Positions 3,847 to 60,841 of a DNA stretch of 63,072 bases are shown here, piece after piece (positions within the stretch are counted from its first letter, which is position 1; every line of letters begins with the position of its first letter). A program made the translations under genes and the position numbers. The notes below the pieces were generated by a model. It saw only the letters and a list, made by a program, of their open reading frames with translations, was not told the origin of the DNA and did not search any database. The DNA comes from a virus, in IMG/VR virus record IMGVR_UViG_3300025660_000448, positions 1 to 63,072 of that record; one strand, given 5' to 3'.

Positions 3847-4119
3847 TCACTTATTAGTTGTAATCTGGGTAAATAAATCACTTCCCAATGCTTTAAGGGA
3901 AGATATGGAAACCTCAATCATAATTTTAAACATTTCTTTGACATTCCACTTTTCTCCACACCCTTGAGAGTATATTGATGCCGCCTGAAGCATAATTGCT
4001 TTATCTTTATACTTGACGACTTTATTTACACATAAATTTTTATTTATTGGCATTCCATAATTTGCAGATGTCAATCTATCTAATCTGTTTAACATTCCTG
4101 AATTGTATTCAAGATTTAC
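3847..4119 (-). pseudogene. C-terminal remnant of an EcoRI-type restriction endonuclease
   Basis: An open 82-codon stretch beginning at 4095 reads like the last third of R.EcoRI: LNRLDRLTSANYGMPIN, then KDKAIMLQAASIYSQG and SLKALGSDLF, each nearly matching my memory of the R.EcoRI C-terminus. The same frame continues past that ATG to 4119 with VNLEYNSG, also R.EcoRI-like, and then meets two stop codons where the GIY-YIG gene ends. The catalytic part of R.EcoRI (Asp91, Glu111, Lys113, and the Glu144/Arg145 recognition arm) lies upstream of this fragment in the family and is absent here. The piece is therefore nuclease-dead; whether the 82-residue peptide is made is unknown. Confidence 0.85.
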
Positions 4120-4886
4120 ACTTCTACTTCATCATGAAACGAGCCTAAATTTATATCTTTATGATTAAAATTAATTCTAGATTGCCATGTTTTGCCTTTT
4201 CTTTTTTTAACTCCTTTATATTTATTTTTAGGAGGTTTTAATCTTATTGCTTTGTTTTTTTTACAAATAGATTCTTGAGATTGTTTTCGTCCCATTTGAC
4301 TACGAGATATTTTTCTTTTTGTTTCTTCAGTATGTTTTCTTTTACCACCACTCTTTTTGCCCAAATTTCCTTCCGATATTTTTCTTTTTGTTTCTTCAGT
4401 ATGTTTTCTTCCCAATTGAGCTTTTCTTCTAGCTTCTCTTACACTATTGGGTGTTCCAAATTTTAAATATCTTTCTTTTTGAGATTTGCTTAATTTTAAT
4501 TTAGATTCATATGTCCAAACTCTAATTCTATTTGCGTTTCCTATTTTGAGTTTTGCTTCTTCAGTATGCTTTCTTCCTCTTGGACTTCCGCCCGCTGTTG
4601 GTTGTATATTATACTGATGTCCCCATACTTGGTCTATCCAAAACTGCTCTCTTTCATCTAATTTATTTTCATCTAAAACTTCTTCTAATAAATAAAACAA
4701 AAAATTAATTTTCTCATATTTATTCCACGCTGCTTGCAAATGTTTATTATAATGTTTATTGTTTACAAGAAGTGATTTATGTTCCATAAACCTTTGGTTC
4801 ATTCCTTTATTTTTACAAACTTGTCCAACATATATCTTTCCATTAATCTTATTTTTAATCGCATATATTCCTTGAATTTTTTCCAT
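4116..4886 (-). CDS. GIY-YIG homing endonuclease with NUMOD3 repeats and truncated AP2-like tail
   Basis: From ATG 4886 (MEKIQGIYAIKNK) the protein opens with a GIY-YIG nuclease domain: GIYAIKNKINGKIYVGQVCK, a downstream MEHKS.L helix and the catalytic-type Glu region EREQFWID. Several NUMOD3 DNA-binding repeats follow (HTEEAKLKIG, HTEETKRKISEGNLGKK, HTEETKRKISRSQMGRK), then YKGVKKRKGKTWQSRINF, which starts an AP2-like domain. That domain stops short at GSFHDEVEV, exactly where EcoRI-endonuclease homology begins in another frame, so the C-terminus is probably clipped. An upstream ATG at 4931 is in frame but would overlap the HTH gene more. It is a selfish DNA-cutting gene, now fused against the restriction gene. 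Confidence 0.85.
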   Translation of the reverse strand: MEKIQGIYAIKNKINGKIYVGQVCKNKGMNQRFMEHKSLLVNNKHYNKHLQAAWNKYEKINFLFYLLEEVLDENKLDEREQFWIDQVWGHQYNIQPTAGGSPRGRKHTEEAKLKIGNANRIRVWTYESKLKLSKSQKERYLKFGTPNSVREARRKAQLGRKHTEETKRKISEGNLGKKSGGKRKHTEETKRKISRSQMGRKQSQESICKKNKAIRLKPPKNKYKGVKKRKGKTWQSRINFNHKDINLGSFHDEVEV

Positions 4887-5037
4887 ATAATATTTTTTCC
4901 AAATCAGAAACATTGTATCTTCGATGCCCACCTAATGTTCTAACAGGGCAGAATTTACCAGACTTATCCCAATTCCTAAGTGTTGTTGTTGTTACTCCTA
5001 ATAATTCAGAAGCAGCTTTAATAGTTATAAGTTGCAT
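4855..5037 (-). CDS. MerR/excisionase-type helix-turn-helix protein
   Basis: A 60-residue protein made almost only of a winged HTH: TIKAASELLGVTTTTLRNWD, then TLGGHRRYNVSDLEKIL. The GGHRRY wing is typical of the MerR-like domains at the N-terminus of IS607-family serine recombinases and of excisionases. No recombinase domain follows; instead the gene overlaps the start of the GIY-YIG gene. A similar HTH gene precedes another nuclease-like gene at 17649. It may help target or regulate the neighbouring endonuclease, which is inference. Confidence 0.75.
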   Translation of the reverse strand: MQLITIKAASELLGVTTTTLRNWDKSGKFCPVRTLGGHRRYNVSDLEKILYGKNSRNICD

Positions 5038-12535: not shown

Positions 12536-12760
12536 ATGTTAAAAGAATTATACTCACAATACGGCGAAATAATGGTACAGATGGAAGTTCTTCAGGCTAG
12601 ATTGAATCAGGTAAAATCCGCAATCTTTGAGGAATTGAAACCTAAACAGGCAGAACAGGCAGAGCAGACTGAAGCAATGCTGGCACCACCCGAACGAGCA
12701 TCAGGATGTTGTCTTGAAACAAATGGTGTTTGCGGTGGCCCTCCAGCAGTAGAAAACTAA
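12536..12760 (+). CDS. Small hypothetical protein with Cys-rich tail
   Basis: Seventy-four residues: an N-terminal helix (LKELYSQYGEIMVQMEVLQARLNQV, heptad-like) and a C-terminal stretch with three Cys (GCCLETNGVCGGPP). It starts behind an AT-rich tract with TATACTATACTAA, a possible -10. Its stop codon overlaps the end of the opposite-strand duplicated guaB tail. Not recognised. Confidence 0.5.
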   Translation: MLKELYSQYGEIMVQMEVLQARLNQVKSAIFEELKPKQAEQAEQTEAMLAPPERASGCCLETNGVCGGPPAVEN

Positions 12761-12855
12761 ATTATAGTCCAATCTGAATTTTTTTGATATTCCGCAATGG
12801 TTCTAGAGTTCATATAACTCATAGAACTTCTAAGACCATTGCGGAATCGGTGTAA
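12757..12855 (-). pseudogene. Second, diverged copy of the IMPDH/GMP-reductase 3' end
   Basis: Directly after the TAG stop of the C-terminal fragment (12856-12858), and in the same frame, the DNA codes 32 more residues beginning LHRFRNGLRSSMSYMNSRTI and then a second TAG. They match the preceding C-terminal residues (QRFINGLRSSMSYLNAKTLD) at most positions. This is a tandem, non-identical duplicate of the gene's 3' end, likely left by recombination with another allele. Readthrough would give a longer protein but need not occur. Confidence 0.75.
12789..12847. repeat. 13-bp inverted repeat (stem-loop)
   Basis: Arms at 12789-12801 (ATTCCGCAATGGT) and 12835-12847 are perfect reverse complements. 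The loop holds a further short palindrome (GAGTTCATATAACTC). No T-tract follows on either strand, so it is not a classical terminator. It lies within the duplicated tail of the fractured gene. Confidence 0.7.
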
Positions 12856-13431
12856 CTAAACTATACAAATTATGGCATTATTCCTATACTCATCTAAAGT
12901 TTTTGCATTTAGATAACTCATACTACTTCGCAGTCCATTAATAAATCTTTGTATAACTGAATTTATAGATGGGCCTAAATCTACAAGATATTCCATACCT
13001 TCAACGTAAGTCGGTTTTTCTCCTTTATAATCCAACTGAGTAGAGTAAGAGGCCGCACCTCTAAACACTTTTTTAAGACGCCCATCTATTTTTACAACTC
13101 TTGCAGGACTTTGTGGACATTGAGCGAAGACGCCCCCTAGCATAGTTATATCAGACCACATAAGTGCTTTATTCATATCGGCAGGAGTTTTTATCCCTCC
13201 ATCAGATATCACAATAGCATCCCCAATTTTATTTTCATAAACCTCCATTAATGTACTTACCATTGGACGATAAATTCCCGTTTCAAATCTTGTCGTACAA
13301 GCAGAATTATGGACAACAATTTCATCTTCCACACAGAAAGAATGGTTGTTTTCTACTTCTAAATCATAAACGATTTCGCCTGTTGTGTTATATGAATCTA
13401 TTTTTTCTATTGGTATCAAGTCAAATTGCAT
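12856..13431 (-). CDS. guaB: Split-intein C-half fused to C-terminal part of IMP dehydrogenase/GMP reductase
   Basis: Residues 1-42 are an intein C-domain: IVYDLEVENNHSFCVEDEIVVHN with the terminal His-Asn needed for cleavage, followed by Ser as the +1 residue. The host extein then continues SACTTRFETGIYRP, the IMPDH/GMPR active-site loop with its catalytic Cys, and on through DGGIKTPADMNKAL and FRGAASYSTQ, both family motifs. Trans-splicing with the N-half encoded at 14403-15221 would restore a whole enzyme. The arrangement matches the fractured IMPDH genes with IMPDH-1-type split inteins described from ocean metagenomes. The start overlaps the homing-nuclease stop by 11 bp. Confidence 0.9.
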   Translation of the reverse strand: MQFDLIPIEKIDSYNTTGEIVYDLEVENNHSFCVEDEIVVHNSACTTRFETGIYRPMVSTLMEVYENKIGDAIVISDGGIKTPADMNKALMWSDITMLGGVFAQCPQSPARVVKIDGRLKKVFRGAASYSTQLDYKGEKPTYVEGMEYLVDLGPSINSVIQRFINGLRSSMSYLNAKTLDEYRNNAIICIV

Positions 13432-14353
13432 TGTAATATTCCTGTAAACTATCTAAAACTCGTAAGTTTCCTTCTTTGACATCTTTTTCCCATATATGAA
13501 ACAATTTAAAATTATGTTTTTCTGCAAATTCAATCTTAGTCTTATCTTTATTTTTGTTTTTCATTTGCATGTCATTAAATTCTTTATATATCTTCGGATT
13601 ACCATGCCAATAATCACCTTGAACTTCCAATAAGATTCTTTTAGATTTACACCCGAAATCATATTGTTTATAATCTAATATAACAGAATATTCAAAATCA
13701 TTCAAGCCTCTTTTGATTAATTCATCTTTTACAATTTTTTCTAATTTGTTAATTTTATATTTCTCATGTTTAGTAGCTGCAACCTTTCCTGCTTTAGACC
13801 TTAATGCCTTATATTTTTCCGGGTCTTTTCTAAACAGTTTTTTTTGACTATTAGAAAATAATTTAGAACGAACGACCTTTTCTTCTTTAGTTAAAGACGC
13901 CTGATATACTCTATTTTTTTCTGCTATTCTATCTAAAATACATTGAGGATGCTTTTTGCCATAAAAAGGATTTTTTTCACCTTTAAATTTCCCCTTTAAA
14001 CTTTCAGATAGCTTTCTCAAAGATTCCTTCGTATGTTTTTTACCATAAAAAGGGCTTATGTTACCTTTATTTTTACTTCCTATTTTATCTTTTGTTTCTT
14101 GTGTATGTTTTTTACCATAAAAAGGGTTTCTGTTACCTAAGCTATTGCAATGGCAACATCTAGGAATTTTATTTATTAAATACCAACTAAGAGTTTTTAC
14201 AAAACGAAGCTTTTTACAATCTGGACATTCTGCCTCTATTTTTTTTATATCTTTAAATGTTATTTCAACACCATTTTCTAACAAATAAACATTTTCCCTT
14301 TTTCTAGAATTTTTACTTACAACTCTTGAACCGTTTAAAAATATATGATGCAT
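13421..14353 (-). CDS. VSR-like (EDxHD-type) homing endonuclease between split-intein halves
   Basis: 310 residues. The N-terminus carries a CPDC/CCHC zinc-binding pair (ECPDCKKL, RCCHCNS), then three NUMOD3 DNA-binding repeats (NPFYGKKHTQETKDKIG, SPFYGKKHTKESLRKLS, NPFYGKKHPQCILDRI). The C-terminal ~100 residues resemble the very-short-patch-repair fold: FEYSVILDYKQYDFGCKSKRI, LLEVQGDYWHGNPK, and HNFKLFHIWEKDV. This domain order and position between split-intein halves are those of the nuclease family described with fractured phage genes (Dassa et al. 2009). A ribosome-binding site AGGAGA precedes ATG 14353. It presumably drives spread of the split-intein allele. Confidence 0.85.
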   Translation of the reverse strand: MHHIFLNGSRVVSKNSRKRENVYLLENGVEITFKDIKKIEAECPDCKKLRFVKTLSWYLINKIPRCCHCNSLGNRNPFYGKKHTQETKDKIGSKNKGNISPFYGKKHTKESLRKLSESLKGKFKGEKNPFYGKKHPQCILDRIAEKNRVYQASLTKEEKVVRSKLFSNSQKKLFRKDPEKYKALRSKAGKVAATKHEKYKINKLEKIVKDELIKRGLNDFEYSVILDYKQYDFGCKSKRILLEVQGDYWHGNPKIYKEFNDMQMKNKNKDKTKIEFAEKHNFKLFHIWEKDVKEGNLRVLDSLQEYYNAI

Positions 14354-14402: not shown

Positions 14403-15221
14403 CTATTCTTTGATTTTTACAAGAAAAAAGTCTTCAGACAAGTCCTCTGCTGACACCCATTTTGCGTACTTTTCTAAATTAATTTTATTGACTTTATCTT
14501 TATCATTTTTATGAACAACATAAAACTCATGATTTTTTGTACATTTAATTCCATTTACATCTATTATTGTTTCAATTTCTTCCCTTGAAGAAACTCCGAC
14601 CACCTTTTGGTAACTTGAATCATGAGTTAAAACTTCTTCTCCTATCTTAATTTTTTCAATTGATTTTCTACCATTTTTAGTTTTTACTTTTGTACCACTG
14701 ATAAAACACCCGCCAGCTATTCCTACTCTAATGGCGTGAACACCCAATTGAGATAATTCATTAAACATTTTCGATGAATGCACATTGCCAACTGTCAAAT
14801 AACAATCCCCAACTATCTCTTTGGCTACATTTATCACCCTTCTGGAAGCGCCATTAGCACAATCAATTAAAAAAGAATTACAACCATGTTTTTTTAAAGA
14901 TGTATACCTTTCTTCCCAGTCATTTAGTGGAATAGCACATCCGGCATACCCACCATTTTCAACTACATGATTATAATCTTTAATTTGTTCTTTTACAGAT
15001 TGAAAACGATGTATAAATCCATAACATTTCAATCTAGATAATTCTAAAGCCATTTTGCCATCACACACATCTGGCATAGGGCTTCCAATCATTGGGTAAA
15101 CATAGTGTCCACAAAATTCTACTAGAGGCTCTATATCAGAACGACTGTTTATTTCTGATATTACGTCAGATACAATTCCAATATCATCATACGACAATGA
15201 ACTTTTTTTTTCTATACGCAT
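14403..15221 (-). CDS. guaB: N-terminal part of IMP dehydrogenase/GMP reductase fused to split-intein N-half
   Basis: Residues about 1-170 are the TIM-barrel N-part of IMPDH/GMPR without CBS domains (LSYDDIGIVSDV at the start; NSFLIDCANGASRRVI; RVGIAGG at the end). At Gly-Gly the intein begins: CFISGTKVKTKNGRKSIEKI (block A, catalytic Cys1) and, about 50 residues on, GIKCTKNHEFYVV (block B with TxxH). It ends with a stop after about 102 intein residues, with no endonuclease insertion. The enzyme acts in guanine nucleotide synthesis or salvage. It overlaps the upstream receiver-domain gene by 10 bp. Confidence 0.9.
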   Translation of the reverse strand: MRIEKKSSLSYDDIGIVSDVISEINSRSDIEPLVEFCGHYVYPMIGSPMPDVCDGKMALELSRLKCYGFIHRFQSVKEQIKDYNHVVENGGYAGCAIPLNDWEERYTSLKKHGCNSFLIDCANGASRRVINVAKEIVGDCYLTVGNVHSSKMFNELSQLGVHAIRVGIAGGCFISGTKVKTKNGRKSIEKIKIGEEVLTHDSSYQKVVGVSSREEIETIIDVNGIKCTKNHEFYVVHKNDKDKVNKINLEKYAKWVSAEDLSEDFFLVKIKE

Positions 15222-15667
15222 TCTATATCTCCGTCATCCTCAGACTCATAAATATAAAAACTATCACAATCAAAATCTGTATCTTCGCAATCCTTAAACT
15301 CACTAGAGAGGCTATCATAATCCAACTCTGAAAATGGGGTATACTCTGCCTTATATCCCGCAGTATTTAACTTTTCTACCATGGACTGAGCAGCATCATA
15401 GTTAAAAGAATGAACAACAAATCTTTGGACATCAGGTTTGTTTTTAACTATCCACCTAACAACTTCCATGCCCGTTTCTTTGTTGGATGGGTCAACGTAA
15501 ACTAGCCCTCCCAAATCATGGTCTAAAAACACACATTTAGCAGTTTCTTCTAATTCAAAAAGCAATTGTATCATTTCTTCCGCTGTTGCCGCTAAAACAG
15601 CAGATGGTATATTACTTTTAAACTCGAACAGACGTTTAGGGTTATCATCTAAAAATAAAACTTTCAT
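15212..15667 (-). CDS. Cyclic-phosphate-processing receiver-like (cREC) protein
   Basis: A 151-residue CheY-like fold: VLFLDDNPKRLFEF holds the acidic pair, VFLDHDLGG the phospho-acceptor-type strand, and FVVHSFNYDAAQSMVEKL a conserved His. The DHDLG and HS.N motifs distinguish the cREC family predicted to act on cyclic phosphates from ordinary two-component receivers. No kinase or output domain is present. In phages such proteins are proposed to take part in RNA end processing or counter-defence, which is inference here. Translated in an operon with the DnaQ-type exonuclease (3-bp gap) and the fractured guaB. Confidence 0.65.
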   Translation of the reverse strand: MKVLFLDDNPKRLFEFKSNIPSAVLAATAEEMIQLLFELEETAKCVFLDHDLGGLVYVDPSNKETGMEVVRWIVKNKPDVQRFVVHSFNYDAAQSMVEKLNTAGYKAEYTPFSELDYDSLSSEFKDCEDTDFDCDSFYIYESEDDGDIECV

Positions 15668-17648: not shown

Positions 17649-17831
17649 ATGATAAAAATAAAATGTGAAAAATACTATACTCCACAAGAAGTAGCTGAAA
17701 AATTTAACGTGAGCACAAATACCGTTGCTAGGTGGAGAAAAAATGGAAAATTATCTGCCCATAACATTAGCGAAAGAAAATTTATGTATTCTGAAACAAG
17801 TATAGAAAAATTCATCACGGGGAACAAATGA
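17649..17831 (+). CDS. Excisionase/MerR-type helix-turn-helix protein
   Basis: Sixty residues, essentially one winged HTH: YTPQEVAEKFNVSTNTVARW followed by RKNGKLSAHNISERKFMYSE. It overlaps the next gene by 4 bp (ATGA) and lies on the + strand amid - strand genes, so the two form an inserted unit. Compare the HTH gene at 4855, also coupled to a nuclease. Repeated GATAA words upstream (17609-17645) may hold its promoter or an operator. Confidence 0.7.
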   Translation: MIKIKCEKYYTPQEVAEKFNVSTNTVARWRKNGKLSAHNISERKFMYSETSIEKFITGNK

Positions 17832-18934
17832 TAATAAATGGAAAAGAATACTTAAAACCTAAAGAAGAGCACCGTCTGACAAAAAGCAGTATAAACAAAA
17901 GAATCCTATCTAAAAATATACAACTAATAGGCAGCTTCAAAGGGGTCCATACAACATCTACATTCAAATGTTTAGTTTGCGGACATACAAGAAATATGGC
18001 AACAGTAAATGTTTTATATGAAAATTACAAATGCAAACAATGCAAACTAAACAAAGAAAAAGAAAATGTTAATAATAAACTTATGTCCAAGTCATTTAAA
18101 TTAACAGAAACATTTAAAGGAAACACAAAAAAACAAAATATAACATGTATGAAATGTAATTATATATTTCATGTAGCTCCAAGGAGAATTTTAGAAAGCG
18201 ACAGAAAATGTCCTAAATGCTCTACAAGGGCTGCTAGAACTCAAAAACGATTTGAAAATAAAATAAAAAAATTAAAAATAATAATGCTGTCTGCTTATAA
18301 AAATGGAAAAACTAAAGTAAAAATAAAATGCACAAAATGTAACACAATATCACAACCTACCCCAACTAACCTATTAAGACCGGGAGCCGGTTGTCGCCAT
18401 TGCTCGATAATTATACCATTAAATATTGCTAAAAAAAGATTATCGAAAAAGAAAATAGACATTCTCCAATATATTAGCTTCTCTGAAAAAGCTCTGTTGC
18501 GATGTGAGAAATGTCAATATATTTGGAAAGCGTCCCCAGACCAAATCTTTCATACCTCTGGATGCCCTGTGTGTAACGCTAGAAAAAACGAGAAATTGAC
18601 ACTTAAATACCTAAAAGAAATGTTAAAAAATATTACTATTGAATATCAATATAGCGTAAAATATGATATTAAAAAAAGATTTATTATAGATTATGCTTTT
18701 AAAACAAAAAATAAACAATATTACGTAGAATACAATGGGGTACAACACTATAAACCAGTTAAATTTTTTGGTGGCGAAAAAAGATTTAAAAAACAAAAAT
18801 CAAGAGATGAAAATCTTATGAAATATTGTATAAATAATAATATAATATTGATAGAAATAGATGGAAGAAAATATACAGATGATAAAATTAAGACTTACTT
18901 AAAAAATAAACTTTCTTCCTATAATTTAATCTAA
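17828..18934 (+). CDS. Zinc-ribbon PD-(D/E)XK-like mobile endonuclease
   Basis: 368 Lys-rich residues. Four or five CxxC zinc-ribbon units come first (FKCLVCGHTRN, YKCKQCKLN, ITCMKCNYIFH, RKCPKCSTR, IKCTKCNTISQ, LRCEKCQYIW, CPVCNARKN). The C-terminal ~100 residues look like a restriction-like nuclease core: FIIDYAFKTKNKQYYVEYNG (D...ExN), VQHYKPVKFFGG, and IILIEIDGRKY. That architecture occurs in free-standing homing-type nucleases. Its orientation against neighbours and its HTH partner suggest a mobile insertion. Very AT-rich codon use. Confidence 0.65.
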   Translation: MIINGKEYLKPKEEHRLTKSSINKRILSKNIQLIGSFKGVHTTSTFKCLVCGHTRNMATVNVLYENYKCKQCKLNKEKENVNNKLMSKSFKLTETFKGNTKKQNITCMKCNYIFHVAPRRILESDRKCPKCSTRAARTQKRFENKIKKLKIIMLSAYKNGKTKVKIKCTKCNTISQPTPTNLLRPGAGCRHCSIIIPLNIAKKRLSKKKIDILQYISFSEKALLRCEKCQYIWKASPDQIFHTSGCPVCNARKNEKLTLKYLKEMLKNITIEYQYSVKYDIKKRFIIDYAFKTKNKQYYVEYNGVQHYKPVKFFGGEKRFKKQKSRDENLMKYCINNNIILIEIDGRKYTDDKIKTYLKNKLSSYNLI

Positions 18935-19827
18935 AGTAAACTTTCTAAATATGCCTTGCGTTGACGAACCTTTTCTTTTTTGCCTTCTGGCATATCTTCC
19001 TCTGCCAATAAGGTGTCACAAGCTTGCACAAAGAAAGGTAAGGCATCTTCGGTATTATAAACTAAATCTTCAGGATTTCTATTTTTTGTCATATTAATAA
19101 AACCCTTAAATTCATCAAAACAACTTCCGTAAATATGAAAACTAGAAGCTATATGAATGTATTCTCCAACATCAACACCGACCTGTTCCGCTACCATTTT
19201 TTGAAGTTCGGTTAGAGCAAATGCATTAAAGAAGGCACCACGATATGCGTCATTACTTCTAAAATCGACTGTCATGTTAAGTTTATCTTTTCCGTTTTCT
19301 CTTTGAACCCTAAACCATACCCTTTGAAGACATGCTGGGTCAGAAATGCCTAAATCTTTCCATACTTTCCACGTTACAGCCTGAGCACGTCTAGTATATC
19401 CATTTTGTTTAAGCAAATCTACACATTTATCTATTTGATTAATTATCGTTTCTTTAGGAGAAGAACTTCCAGTTAGAGCACCATATTCTACATCAGCAAT
19501 AGTCTCAGTTACATTATATTCAAATAATCTTTCGTGATAAGTGTATTCCCATTTTCCAGCATCAGGGTCTATCCAATGGTTATGAACTCCGTACAACATT
19601 TCTGAGCGGTATTTTTCTAAATCGTCCAAAGAACCGGGAAATGCACGATGTATTCTAGGTTCTGCCATTGGGTTTTTAACATGAATAAGGGCGGTAACGT
19701 CCCGGCTATTTGGGTCGTTTTCTTTATCATATTCAGTAGGGAAATTCTCGCCCTCTTCCCAACAAGCTAAAACAGCCTTTTCCCATGCTACAGGTAATGT
19801 ATCTTCTACAATGTGTATTGATTTCAT
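18931..19827 (-). CDS. thyA: Thymidylate synthase / pyrimidine hydroxymethylase family protein
   Basis: Start at ATG 19827 (MKSIHIVEDTLPVAW), giving 298 residues. Motifs of the ThyA fold: DPACLQRVWFRV near 165 with the nucleophile-type Cys, VDFRSNDAYRGAFFNAFAL near 185 (the RS.D...G.PFN segment), and HIASSFHIYG near 220 (the GD.HIY segment). It would methylate dUMP, or hydroxymethylate dUMP or dCMP to make a modified base; the deciding residues are uncertain. A promoter lies immediately before the ATG with almost no leader. Its stop overlaps the nuclease gene at 17828-18934 tail to tail. Confidence 0.75.
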   Translation of the reverse strand: MKSIHIVEDTLPVAWEKAVLACWEEGENFPTEYDKENDPNSRDVTALIHVKNPMAEPRIHRAFPGSLDDLEKYRSEMLYGVHNHWIDPDAGKWEYTYHERLFEYNVTETIADVEYGALTGSSSPKETIINQIDKCVDLLKQNGYTRRAQAVTWKVWKDLGISDPACLQRVWFRVQRENGKDKLNMTVDFRSNDAYRGAFFNAFALTELQKMVAEQVGVDVGEYIHIASSFHIYGSCFDEFKGFINMTKNRNPEDLVYNTEDALPFFVQACDTLLAEEDMPEGKKEKVRQRKAYLESLL

Positions 19828-19833
19828 AAAAAG

Positions 19834-19862
19834 ATTATATCTTAAACCAAATTGAATTACAA
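19834..19862 (-). promoter_or_regulatory. Sigma70-like promoter for a leaderless thyA transcript
   Basis: On the - strand: TTGTAA, a 17-nt spacer and a consensus TATAAT, which ends just 6 nt before the ATG at 19827. Transcription would start at or next to the A of the start codon, and no Shine-Dalgarno sequence can be placed. This suggests a leaderless mRNA. Confidence 0.5.
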
Positions 19863-19866
19863 AACA

Positions 19867-19904
19867 AAAACCCACTTAAATCATTTTTTAAGTGGGTTTT
19901 TTAT
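19867..19904. terminator. Rho-independent terminator (bidirectional)
   Basis: A perfect 14-bp stem (19867-19880 with 19887-19900, core AACCCACTTAAA) and 6-nt loop. T-tracts follow on both strands. It separates the operon at 20089-21224 from the thyA promoter. Confidence 0.85.
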
Positions 19905-36161: not shown

Positions 36162-36839
36162 CTAATTTTGATGTTTTGAAACCATATGACACATGTTAAT
36201 GAAATATTCCTGAGCATATCTGTGTTTCATTATGTTTATATGCTTGTGTACCCATTGAATATTTTCTTTTGTATATCCTTTTTCATTTTCAATACGGTCA
36301 ATAGAGGCAGTCATTATTGGTTTAAAAGTTAATTCTATGCCCGTTAAAGTGCATTTATAATTCTGTTTCTCCAACACTTCTATAGCATCTTCTTCTGTAA
36401 TAGACCATTCTCTTTTTCTTGTTTGTGCCTGTTTCATCGTTTTGTACCACCAACTTGACGGTATGATTTCTGTTTCTACGGTTTTATTGTGACCACATTC
36501 AAAACAACACTTAGATGAATGTCGTATTAAATTATTCCCACCTACACTTCGTTCATTCCCACATTTACATCTACATAACCACATGCTCTTCCCATGTCTA
36601 TCATTTGGAAGCCTTTTTAATACTGTCCAATCACAAATCTGTTCTCCTTGGAGTTTTAATGCTCGACAATTTTTACATCTCTTTGTTTTTCCATGAAATA
36701 CCCTCGATGCCACTAAGCTTGTTTCATAACCACATTCACATTGACAAATATAGCGACGACGCCGCCTTTCATCTACTTTATCAAAAGAAATAATTAACCA
36801 ATCATTATATTTCTTTCCTACCTCTAAAATTGTTCTCAT
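36162..36839 (-). CDS. HNH homing endonuclease with zinc ribbons
   Basis: 225 residues. Two CxC...CxxC ribbons (YICQCECGYETSL with RCKNCRALK; LCRCKCGNERSVG with CCFECGHNK) bind DNA, followed by an HNH-type core: NYKCTLTGIELTFKPIMTAS, then IDRIENEKGYTKENIQWVHK with His replaced by Asp-Arg as in many phage HNH enzymes, and HINIMKHRY. It lies between helicase and the 36857 gene without splitting either, so it is a free-standing mobile gene. Confidence 0.82.
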   Translation of the reverse strand: MRTILEVGKKYNDWLIISFDKVDERRRRRYICQCECGYETSLVASRVFHGKTKRCKNCRALKLQGEQICDWTVLKRLPNDRHGKSMWLCRCKCGNERSVGGNNLIRHSSKCCFECGHNKTVETEIIPSSWWYKTMKQAQTRKREWSITEEDAIEVLEKQNYKCTLTGIELTFKPIMTASIDRIENEKGYTKENIQWVHKHINIMKHRYAQEYFINMCHMVSKHQN

Positions 36840-50929: not shown

Positions 50930-52543
50930 ATGCCTGATAATGCGTATACAGAAAATGATATTAGTTCGGTAACATTAGACAAAATTGCTAGTGATAATAG
51001 TGTTGATGATATGTCTCTGGCTCAAGGAACGGGAGTTACCGCAACGGGGATACAAGGCTCTTTCGCTCAAGGAAGTAATGCTACGGCATCAGGACGCCTT
51101 GGCTCTTTCGCTCAAGGAAGTAATGCGATAGCATCAGGTACAGGAGGGGCTTTTGCCCAAGGTGCCGGAGCACATGCATTAGGAATAAAAGGTTCTTTTG
51201 CCCAAGGCTTGTCAACTACGGCATCGGGTACGGCAGGGGCTTTTGCTCAAGGAAGTGGTGCTGTGGCTACTGGGCACCATGGTTCTTTTGCTCAGGGAGC
51301 GACTGTTACAGCGGGTTCAGGTATAGCGGGTGAGATTTCCGGTGCTTTTGCTCAAGGAAAAAGTGCTACGGCATCAGGAATAAAAGGTTCTTTTGCACAA
51401 GGCACAGGAGTTACAGCATCAGGTACAGCAGGAACTTTTGCTCAAGGAAGTCAGGCGACAACAACAGGAAACATAGGTTCTTTTGCTCAAGGTGCTGTTG
51501 TCGCTGCGGGAAGTAACGGTTCTTTTGCTCAAGGTAATAGTGCTATAGTATCATCAGGCAATGGTGCTTTTGCTCAAGGTGTTAGTGTTGCGGCAGCAGG
51601 AAACGGTTCTTTTGCTCAAGGTGCCTACGTTATAGCATCGGGAATAAAAGGTTCTTTTGCTCAAGGTTCGTCTACGAAAGCCTATGGTACAGCAGGGTGT
51701 TTCGCTCAAGGAAGCGAAACTCAGGCATACGGAAATTTAGGTTCTTTTGCTCAAGGAGAAGCTGCTCAGGCATCAGGAAGTGTAGGTTCTTTTGCTCAAG
51801 GAAATACGGTCACAGCGTGGGGACATATTGGTTGTTTTGCTCAAGGGCAGAATATCTACAGCGGCCAGAACAACAGTGATTCTTTTGGTTGTTTTGCTCA
51901 AGGAGTCTCCTTAGAAGCTTCAGGGACTAAAGGTAGTTTTGCTCAAGGAAGTAATGCTACAGCAAGCGGTAATTACGGTAGTTTTGCGCAAGGTGGAGCC
52001 TGCAGCGCATCAGGTGTCGGCAGTTTCGCTCAAGGTAAAAATTGTACTGCAACTGGTAACTACGGCACTTTTGCTTCAGGAACTAACGCATACGCACTTA
52101 ATACCCCCTCTTTCGCTCTAGGTTATAATGTTAATGCGTCCGGTTCGGGTTCTTTTGCTTTAGGAAAGAATTGTGTGTCGTCTGGTGATTATTCATTTAC
52201 TCTTGGTTTAGATTGCAAAGCGTTAAACACGACTTCCTTTGCTCAAGGCTCTGGGGCGTCAGCATACGGTTCAAGCTCTTTTGCTTTTGGCAATGGAGCC
52301 ACAGCCTCGGCTGACTACTCTATACAATTCGGAAATGGCCAAAATAGTAATAGTAATAGTTTATATTGTTCAACTATAAATGCTGCTACTTTATATGGTA
52401 GTTATGTGAAATGTGGTAGCAGTGGCTTCAGCGCAAATGGCACTTCAGGGGCCTTTGGCACGTCTTTTTGGGTGGCTGGGACTGCCGGAGGTTCGTATTA
52501 TATGACTATAAAATACGGTATTGTTACCGGGGTGTCAAACTAG
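50930..52543 (+). CDS. YadA-head-like repeat adhesin / tail fibre
   Basis: 537 residues. After ~35 N-terminal residues, about 25 units of 13-17 residues follow with the core GSFAQGxxAxASG (for example GSFAQGSNATASG). This is the left-handed beta-roll of YadA/Hep_Hag head domains, which trimerise. Units drift toward SFALGxNxxASG near 380-430, then a unique end (STINAATLYGSYVKCGSSGF, SFWVAGTAGGSYYMTIKYGI). GAGGGTAAAATATG gives a good ribosome-binding site. It is a likely host-binding fibre or head decoration. Confidence 0.75.
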   Translation: MPDNAYTENDISSVTLDKIASDNSVDDMSLAQGTGVTATGIQGSFAQGSNATASGRLGSFAQGSNAIASGTGGAFAQGAGAHALGIKGSFAQGLSTTASGTAGAFAQGSGAVATGHHGSFAQGATVTAGSGIAGEISGAFAQGKSATASGIKGSFAQGTGVTASGTAGTFAQGSQATTTGNIGSFAQGAVVAAGSNGSFAQGNSAIVSSGNGAFAQGVSVAAAGNGSFAQGAYVIASGIKGSFAQGSSTKAYGTAGCFAQGSETQAYGNLGSFAQGEAAQASGSVGSFAQGNTVTAWGHIGCFAQGQNIYSGQNNSDSFGCFAQGVSLEASGTKGSFAQGSNATASGNYGSFAQGGACSASGVGSFAQGKNCTATGNYGTFASGTNAYALNTPSFALGYNVNASGSGSFALGKNCVSSGDYSFTLGLDCKALNTTSFAQGSGASAYGSSSFAFGNGATASADYSIQFGNGQNSNSNSLYCSTINAATLYGSYVKCGSSGFSANGTSGAFGTSFWVAGTAGGSYYMTIKYGIVTGVSN

Positions 52544-60194: not shown

Positions 60195-60259
60195 AGGAAA
60201 GTTTTTACAAAAAATATACTCCGAAATACTATATAATTACAAGAAAGGAATTGTATAGT

Positions 60260-60841
60260 ATGCCAAGTAATTCTAAAGAATGGAGACGTAAAAAACTAGA
60301 AAAAGGATTATGTTATACATGTGGGAAAAACCCACATAATCCTAATAGAAAAGAATGTGAATCTTGTCGAAAAAAAAGAAACAAAAGACAAAGAGAAGAT
60401 TATCACAAAGGGACCAAAAGTACTAAAACAAAAAAAGCTTTATCTGACAAATATCAAAAGTTGAAAAAACAAGGATTATGTACTAAATGTGGCAAAAAAG
60501 AAACGATAAAAAATAAGACAACATGTAAACTATGTTCAGAAAGAGTGAAAATTCGTTATAACGAATTAAAAGATACTGTATTTGAAGGATATGGCGGTTA
60601 TTCTTGTAAATGTTGTGGAGAAACTATTAAAGAATTCCTCACATTAGACCATATCAATAATGATGGGGCTGAACATAGAAGAAAAATTTTTGGCGAAAAT
60701 GGTCGTCGGTGTGGGTCTGGAAGAACCTTATATCTTTGGATAATTCGAAATAACTTTCCTCCAATTTTTCAAGTATTGTGTTCTAATTGCAATTGGGGAA
60801 AAAGAATGAATGATGGTATATGCCCCCATGAATCGTATTGA
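60260..60841 (+). CDS. HNH endonuclease with zinc ribbons
   Basis: Start at ATG 60260 (MPSNSKEWRRKKLEKGLCYT), 193 residues. Three CxxC units precede the nuclease (LCYTCGKNPHN, CESCRKKR, LCTKCGKKE with CKLC). The HNH core is YSCKCCGETIKEFLTLDHIN, then NDGAEHRRKIFG and FQVLCSNCNWGKRMNDG. Such genes are free-standing mobile endonucleases. It overlaps the start of the next gene by 14 bp, an insertion-like position. Confidence 0.82.
   Translation: MPSNSKEWRRKKLEKGLCYTCGKNPHNPNRKECESCRKKRNKRQREDYHKGTKSTKTKKALSDKYQKLKKQGLCTKCGKKETIKNKTTCKLCSERVKIRYNELKDTVFEGYGGYSCKCCGETIKEFLTLDHINNDGAEHRRKIFGENGRRCGSGRTLYLWIIRNNFPPIFQVLCSNCNWGKRMNDGICPHESY

What the first reader, a model, noticed from the sequence alone, without database searches (positions are those of the whole stretch)
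12757..13000. In-frame duplicate of the guaB 3' end behind an amber stop
Seen: after TAG at 12856-12858 the same frame codes LHRFRNGLRSSMSYMNSRTI, nearly repeating the QRFINGLRSSMSYLNAKTL just upstream, then a second TAG. Two alternative C-termini therefore sit in tandem. It looks like allele replacement by recombination next to a homing nuclease, leaving the old 3' end, or a built-in alternative by readthrough.
Basis: seen in the sequence. Interest (0 to 1): 0.72.

Follow-up and report, generated by a model that had tools for sequence, protein, structure and literature searches.

The report
Leftover gene end from homing invasion
In this phage a gene for a nucleotide-making enzyme was swapped for a foreign version that carries a selfish DNA-cutting element, and the last 33 codons of the original gene were left behind right after the new one, showing where the exchange stopped.

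Summary
After guaB's TAG (12856-12858, minus strand) the same frame carries a second guaB 3' end (12757-12855). A sister phage contig in IMG/VR (L010) has an uninterrupted, intein-less guaB at the same locus. Its last 33 codons match this second tail at 95 of 99 bases; the window's own guaB tail matches L010 at 59 of 99. Both flanks match L010 at about 90-95%. The guaB between them is foreign from start codon to stop: 47% amino-acid identity, and 12 of 53 four-fold sites the same against 75-92% in neighbours. The incoming allele is a 'fractured' gene: N-extein plus N-intein, a NUMOD3/EDxHD (Vsr-like) nuclease, C-intein plus C-extein, of the IMPDH-1 kind. The second tail is thus a relic of the displaced resident allele. 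The first TAG is the normal end of guaB, so readthrough is not needed. Inferred, not shown: nuclease-induced break repair whose 3' joint was illegitimate. The relic contains a very strong hairpin starting about 8 nt inside the joint, which may have set or preserved it. Precedent: fungal mitochondrial genes with displaced native C-termini. None of six other distinct fractured loci checked has such a relic.

The parts
12757..12855 (-). Relic: last 33 codons (stop included) of the displaced resident guaB, in frame behind the new guaB stop; not attached to a start of its own, not expected to be translated
   Evidence: 95/99 nt identical to the end of intact guaB in L010; alignment
12789..12847 (-). 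Hairpin inside the relic (arms 12789-12807 and 12829-12847)
   Evidence: the repeat finder; z -6.3 for 12755-12880; the 60-base window at 12791 is the second most stable of 6302 in the contig, plus strand, step 10; also present in L010's coding sequence, -28.5 against -29.9 kcal/mol
12856..12858 (-). TAG, normal stop codon of the incoming guaB C-extein; the 3' recombination joint lies at 12854/12855
   Evidence: blastn homology with L010 starts at 12854; alignments
12859..13305 (-). C-extein of the incoming IMPDH/GMP-reductase-like enzyme (149 aa)
   Evidence: PF00478; extein length
13306..13431 (-). C-intein (42 aa), ends HN before Ser+1
   Evidence: TIGR01443 intein_Cterm; Intein_splicing (below cut-off); sequence
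13421..14353 (-). Free-standing homing endonuclease gene between the two guaB halves (NUMOD3 plus EDxHD/Vsr-like nuclease domain)
   Evidence: NUMOD3; fold best hits I-Bth0305I then Vsr
14406..14708 (-). N-intein (101 aa), Cys1, TKNH block B
   Evidence: Hint_2 above cut-off, Hom_end_hint below; 43-48% to other phage inteins at the same site
14709..15221 (-). N-extein of the incoming enzyme (171 aa)
   Evidence: PF00478; 47% identity to L010
15212..15667 (-). Upstream cREC-domain gene, resident flank; 5' break at about 15216, at the guaB start codon
   Evidence: cREC_REC; homology to L010 stops at 15216; alignment
12536..12760 (+). Convergent 74-aa gene, resident flank on the 3' side; its stop codon overlaps the relic's stop
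   Evidence: 203/213 aligned nt identical to L010

Best explanation
The second tail is the surviving 3' end of the guaB allele that this phage lineage carried before. A related phage donated a divergent, fractured guaB (N-extein/N-intein, EDxHD-type homing endonuclease, C-intein/C-extein). The exchange ran from the guaB start codon on the 5' side to the donor's stop codon on the 3' side, and there it was joined to the resident gene 33 codons before its end. The resident's last 99 bases therefore remain as an in-frame relic behind the stop, not expected to be translated. Shown: the relic's identity to the intact sister allele, the foreignness of the whole guaB ORF, both breakpoints, and the intein/endonuclease anatomy. 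Inferred: that the endonuclease cut the intein-less resident, that resection and repair with the co-infecting donor copied the cassette, and that the 3' joint was illegitimate because the donor and recipient flanks did not match there.
For: L010 has an uninterrupted 316-aa guaB ending IIHRFRNGLRSSMSYMNSRTIAEYQKKSDWTII at the same locus. Relic 95/99 nt identical to it; first tail 59/99. Four flanking genes compared are 90.9-95.3% nt identical. guaB 47% aa identity over both exteins (145/310; N 77/163, C 68/147), with 12/53 four-fold sites the same against 75-92% in five neighbouring genes and 9/10 in the relic. Homology stops at 15216 and restarts at 12854. The split-intein plus endonuclease layout at the same active-site-loop position is seen in all five distinct fractured guaB loci examined, the window included. 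The nuclease fold matches I-Bth0305I and Vsr. L010's 24.5-kb contig gave no match to the endonuclease (no positive control).
Against: Only one close relative was found, so the direction rests on one intact allele plus the relic. No donor allele was found (0 relatives of the C-extein in viral contigs), so microhomology at the joint cannot be measured. Six other distinct fractured loci show no relic, so relics are not a regular result. Endonuclease activity and splicing were not tested. L010 carries its own insertion (TnpB) about 45-50 bp upstream of guaB, so the locus has had other rearrangements.
Confidence: 0.85

Rival explanations
1. Tandem duplication of guaB's own 3' end followed by rapid divergence of the upstream copy, with no horizontal replacement.
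For: The two tails are homologous, adjacent and in the same frame.
Against: Divergence from L010 covers the whole guaB ORF, not only the tail (47% and 46% in the two exteins), and silent four-fold sites are randomised (12/53, against 75-92% in neighbours). Fast protein evolution alone would not do that.
Confidence: 0.03
2. Programmed alternative C-terminus made by readthrough of the first TAG.
For: The second tail is in frame and its reading frame is intact.
Against: The first TAG is the normal guaB end. Readthrough would add a second copy of the terminal segment to an already complete enzyme. No tRNA gene in the window (the contig may be a fragment). The frame agreement has a 1 in 3 chance of arising anyway.
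Confidence: 0.02
3. Assembly chimera joining two alleles from a mixed phage population.
For: Both sequences come from IMG/VR records, most likely metagenome assemblies.
Against: The relic and the cassette share at most 10 consecutive bases, and L010 guaB and the cassette at most 12, too short for an ordinary de Bruijn join. Both flanks carry fixed differences from L010 of about 5-10%.
Confidence: 0.04
4. The fractured guaB is ancestral to the window's lineage, and the downstream flank (with the resident-type tail) was imported from an L010-like phage by a crossover at the guaB stop.
For: The same 3' joint would result.
Against: The upstream flank is equally L010-like (cREC 91.6%, exonuclease 92.8%), so separate exchanges would be needed on either side of guaB; one replacement of the middle is simpler.
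Confidence: 0.06

Closest known systems
Fractured genes with split inteins and EDxHD endonucleases (Dassa et al. 2009, recalled and seen only as a citation; IMPDH-1 split intein described in PMC11766414, passages read)
   Same: Two ORFs with N- and C-intein halves flank a free-standing endonuclease gene in an IMPDH-family gene. Intein halves of 101 and 42 aa with Cys1 and Ser+1; the table in PMC11766414 gives IMPDH-1 106 and 42, Cys1, Ser.
   Different: Here the invaded locus kept a scrap of the displaced allele, and an intact sister allele shows the pre-invasion state. The window intein was not aligned to the published IMPDH-1 sequence.
Fungal mitochondrial gene hybrids with mobile endonuclease ORFs (atp6, atp9, cox2, nad3; PMC3630166, passages read)
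   Same: Foreign C-terminus attached to the gene, endonuclease ORF with it, and the native C-terminus left downstream and closer to relatives than the attached one.
   Different: There only the C-terminus is foreign and the endonuclease lies between the two C-termini. Here the whole ORF is foreign, the endonuclease sits inside a split intein, and the relic is 99 bp directly behind the stop. Phage, not mitochondrion.
[quoted passage not shown]
   Same: A homologous junction on one side and an illegitimate one on the other is the inferred path.
   Different: Laboratory td-intron system; here a natural footprint, without proof of the break.
I-Bth0305I (EDxHD/Vsr-like homing endonuclease; PMC3943268, passages read)
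   Same: Best fold match of the model (3r3p, E 8.8e-4, TM 0.77 by target length); NUMOD-type DNA-binding modules beside a nuclease domain.
   Different: 18% identity; I-Bth0305I is treated among group I intron endonucleases in PMC3943268, this one lies between intein halves.

Membership tests
Fractured gene with split intein (IMPDH-1 kind) | Host gene split into two ORFs ending and starting with complementary intein halves | tested here: met
   ORFs 14403-15221 and 12856-13431; Hint_2, Intein_splicing and intein_Cterm matches
Fractured gene with split intein (IMPDH-1 kind) | Catalytic residues Cys1, TxxH, C-terminal His-Asn, +1 Ser | tested here: met
   Sequence: GG|CFISG, TKNH, VVHN|S; that these are the defining residues is recalled
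Fractured gene with split intein (IMPDH-1 kind) | Free-standing homing endonuclease gene between the halves | tested here: met
   ORF 13421-14353 with NUMOD3; same layout in L006, L008, L009, L013
Fractured gene with split intein (IMPDH-1 kind) | Trans-splicing gives an intact enzyme | not testable with these tools
   Needs expression
EDxHD (Vsr-like) homing endonucleases | Vsr-like catalytic fold | tested here: met
   Foldseek best hits 3r3p and 1cw0; overall pLDDT 65.9, last 110 residues 79-93 by blocks of ten
EDxHD (Vsr-like) homing endonucleases | The E-D-x-H-D active-site residues | not tested
   Not mapped residue by residue onto 3r3p
EDxHD (Vsr-like) homing endonucleases | Site-specific cleavage of the intein-less allele | not testable with these tools
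   No activity assay; empty site identified in L010
Endonuclease-linked gene hybrid with displaced native C-terminus (fungal mORF kind) | Detached C-terminus matches the close relative, attached C-terminus is foreign | tested here: met
   95/99 against 59/99
Endonuclease-linked gene hybrid with displaced native C-terminus (fungal mORF kind) | Endonuclease ORF lies between the two C-termini | tested here: not met
   The relic follows the stop directly; the endonuclease lies upstream in the intein

The most novel reading that the evidence does not exclude
The strong hairpin that already existed in the resident guaB's last codons (it begins about 8 nt inside the surviving sequence) decided where the exchange stopped. 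It may have blocked resection of the broken resident DNA, or been kept because it serves as the 3'-end structure shared by the two convergent genes. The relic would then be a coding scrap turned into an intergenic RNA/DNA element, and such hairpins would predict homing-tract ends in phages.
Probability: 0.2. Interest if true: 0.6.

Novelty: new variant of a known kind. Interest (0 to 1): 0.45.

Why it matters
Fractured genes are mostly seen as finished arrangements, and their spread is inferred. Here a sister phage with the empty allele and a relic in the invaded one give both ends of the exchanged tract, its likely direction, and the natural target site. The target of this endonuclease family and the homology rules of its homing become testable with defined DNA. 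It also warns that in-frame 'duplicates' after a stop can be scars of gene replacement rather than readthrough signals, and brings to phages a pattern described for fungal mitochondria.

Tried and rejected
Readthrough and suppressor tRNA: no tRNA in the window; the first stop is homologous to the normal end. Intrinsic terminator at the relic hairpin: none found by the pattern scan. Donor of the window-type guaB: none in viral contigs, and only under-60% relatives in 47 phage records. Wider phylogeny: in a 9-sequence tree the window and L010 enzymes group together (90/93), no branch reached the tool's strong threshold, and three rows were long, so the donor's clade is not placed. GC3 does not clearly mark the cassette as foreign (0.18-0.23 against a mean of 0.26, sd 0.05, in 43 window ORFs of at least 200 aa). 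IMPDH or GMP reductase could not be decided: both families match, none reaches its NCBIfam cut-off. More relatives of the locus: all returned only the L010 contig. Relics in other loci: none in L006 (L007, with the same ORFs, also scanned, none), L008, L009, L013, L018 (L019 and L020 show the same ORFs there and were not scanned) and L024; L021-L023 have contiguous inteins and were left out; L025-L027 were not examined. One search printed a relic/L010 DNA identity of 29 because the two stretches were out of register; one search gives the right count, 95 of 99.

Full report
What was claimed and what is there. The window is a 63,072-base virus record of IMG/VR. On the minus strand a guaB-like gene ends at TAG 12856-12858. 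The same frame then reads LHRFRNGLRSSMSYMNSRTIAEYQKNSDWTII and stops at TAG 12757-12759. The two tails share 17 of 32 residues and 60 of 99 bases; 0 of 100,000 shuffles of the second tail reached 17. A local DNA alignment scored 84 against a maximum of 70 in 1000 shuffles.

The gene in front. guaB is in two ORFs. ORF 14403-15221 holds 171 residues of an IMPDH/GMP-reductase-like enzyme followed by 101 residues of intein. ORF 12856-13431 holds 42 residues of intein followed by 149 residues of enzyme. Between them lies ORF 13421-14353, with three NUMOD3 stretches and a C-terminal domain; the best structural matches of the model are the homing endonuclease I-Bth0305I (3r3p, E 8.8e-4) and, after its second chain, the Vsr endonuclease (1cw0, E 3.8e-3). 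The model is confident mainly in its last 110 residues. This is the 'fractured gene' layout. A search with the intein brought four further guaB loci with the same layout, two of them with the same ORFs (L006 and L007), and an alignment search added L013. In all five distinct loci, the window included, the intein sits at the same place in the active-site loop, before a Ser or Cys.

The decisive comparison. A neighbouring exonuclease gene led to one close relative, L010, a stretch of a 24.5-kb IMG/VR contig. Four flanking genes compared are 90.9-95.3% identical in DNA to the window's. Its guaB is one uninterrupted ORF of 316 residues without intein or endonuclease, and the endonuclease gave no match in that contig (no positive control). 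L010's guaB ends in IIHRFRNGLRSSMSYMNSRTIAEYQKKSDWTII. The window's second tail matches those last 33 codons at 95 of 99 bases; the window's own guaB tail matches them at 59 of 99. Blastn homology between the two contigs runs to window 15216, at the start codon of guaB, fails over guaB except for one 113-column stretch at 73% (15081-14971), and starts again at 12854, at the first TAG.

The guaB in between is foreign as a whole. Its exteins are 47% identical in protein to L010's guaB (145 of 310; N part 77/163, C part 68/147). At four-fold sites of conserved residues 12 of 53 are the same, about what unrelated silent sites give, while five neighbouring genes have 75-92% and the relic 9 of 10. 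So this is not one gene evolving fast but a swap. Since both flanks and the relic are of the L010 type, the simplest history is that the window's ancestor carried an L010-type guaB and lost it, all but 99 bases, to a fractured allele from a more distant phage.

How it most likely happened. Inferred steps: during co-infection the donor's endonuclease cut the intein-less guaB; the broken ends were resected; repair copied the donor gene. On the 5' side the exchange ended at the start codon. T4 work reviewed in PMC2988022 (passages read) describes one-sided events with illegitimate junctions at microhomology and extensive degradation. I could not measure microhomology because no donor allele was found. 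The frame agreement of the relic has a one in three chance and needs no explanation.

The hairpin. The relic contains a 19-nt inverted repeat. The stretch 12755-12880 folds with a z-score of -6.3, and the 60-base window at 12791 is the second most stable of 6302 in the contig. The hairpin was already in the coding sequence of the resident gene (-28.5 kcal/mol in L010, -29.9 here). The surviving resident sequence begins about 8 nt before its stem. It is not an intrinsic terminator by pattern. The relic also ends on the stop codon of a convergent gene. Either the hairpin stopped resection, or losing it was harmful, or the closeness is chance. This is my most novel reading and is untested.

What speaks against other readings. 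Readthrough: the first TAG is at the homologous natural end of the protein, TAG ends 9 of 60 long ORFs, and no tRNA was found. Assembly artefact: relic and cassette share at most 10 consecutive bases, L010 guaB and cassette at most 12. Duplication in place: contradicted by silent-site divergence over the whole gene. Import of the downstream flank instead of the gene: would need separate events on both sides.

How general it is. Six other distinct fractured loci (L006, L008, L009, L013, and the non-guaB L018 and L024) were scanned for a second tail within 800 bases downstream: 0 of 6 scored above the best of 100 shuffles, while the window scored 91 against 43. Relics are thus occasional. In fungal mitochondria a similar outcome is described for atp6, atp9, cox2 and nad3 with mobile endonuclease ORFs (PMC3630166, passages read). 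There the endonuclease lies between the two C-termini and only the C-terminus is foreign, which is not met here. Searches of the paper library for a phage case (listings only, apart from passages of PMC2988022, PMC3943268 and PMC10448857) showed none, but the library lacks most subscription papers and the 2009 fractured-genes paper itself.

Verdict.

Noticed in passing
L010:8929-10288: The intact sister allele carries a TnpB-family gene (IS200/IS605-like) inserted in the end of the cREC gene, about 45-50 bp upstream of guaB, at the window position 15267-15270; the window has no match to it. Two different kinds of mobile-element nuclease thus border or interrupt the same gene in two sister phages.
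   Followed up: partly
window 17828-19875: A thymidylate synthase gene and a zinc-finger-rich putative nuclease gene (DUF4379; nuclease by eye) lie where L010 has only a short ORF; a 37-base stretch at the start of that region is shared. Possibly another nuclease-linked cassette.
   Followed up: no
window 4116-4931, 36162-36839, 60251-60841: Further endonuclease-like genes: one GIY-YIG plus NUMOD3; the other two look like HNH genes by eye only, with no Pfam match.
   Followed up: no
L018:5722-7647: A fractured phage gene of another kind: split intein with a GIY-YIG-looking ORF between the halves, next to head genes (domain names by eye).
   Followed up: no
L024:165-2799: A fractured gene that looks like a topoisomerase subunit, with a nuclease-like ORF between the intein halves (by eye).
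   Followed up: no
window 50930-52543: Long protein of many repeated GSFAQG-type units, probably a structural or adhesin-like repeat protein.
   Followed up: no
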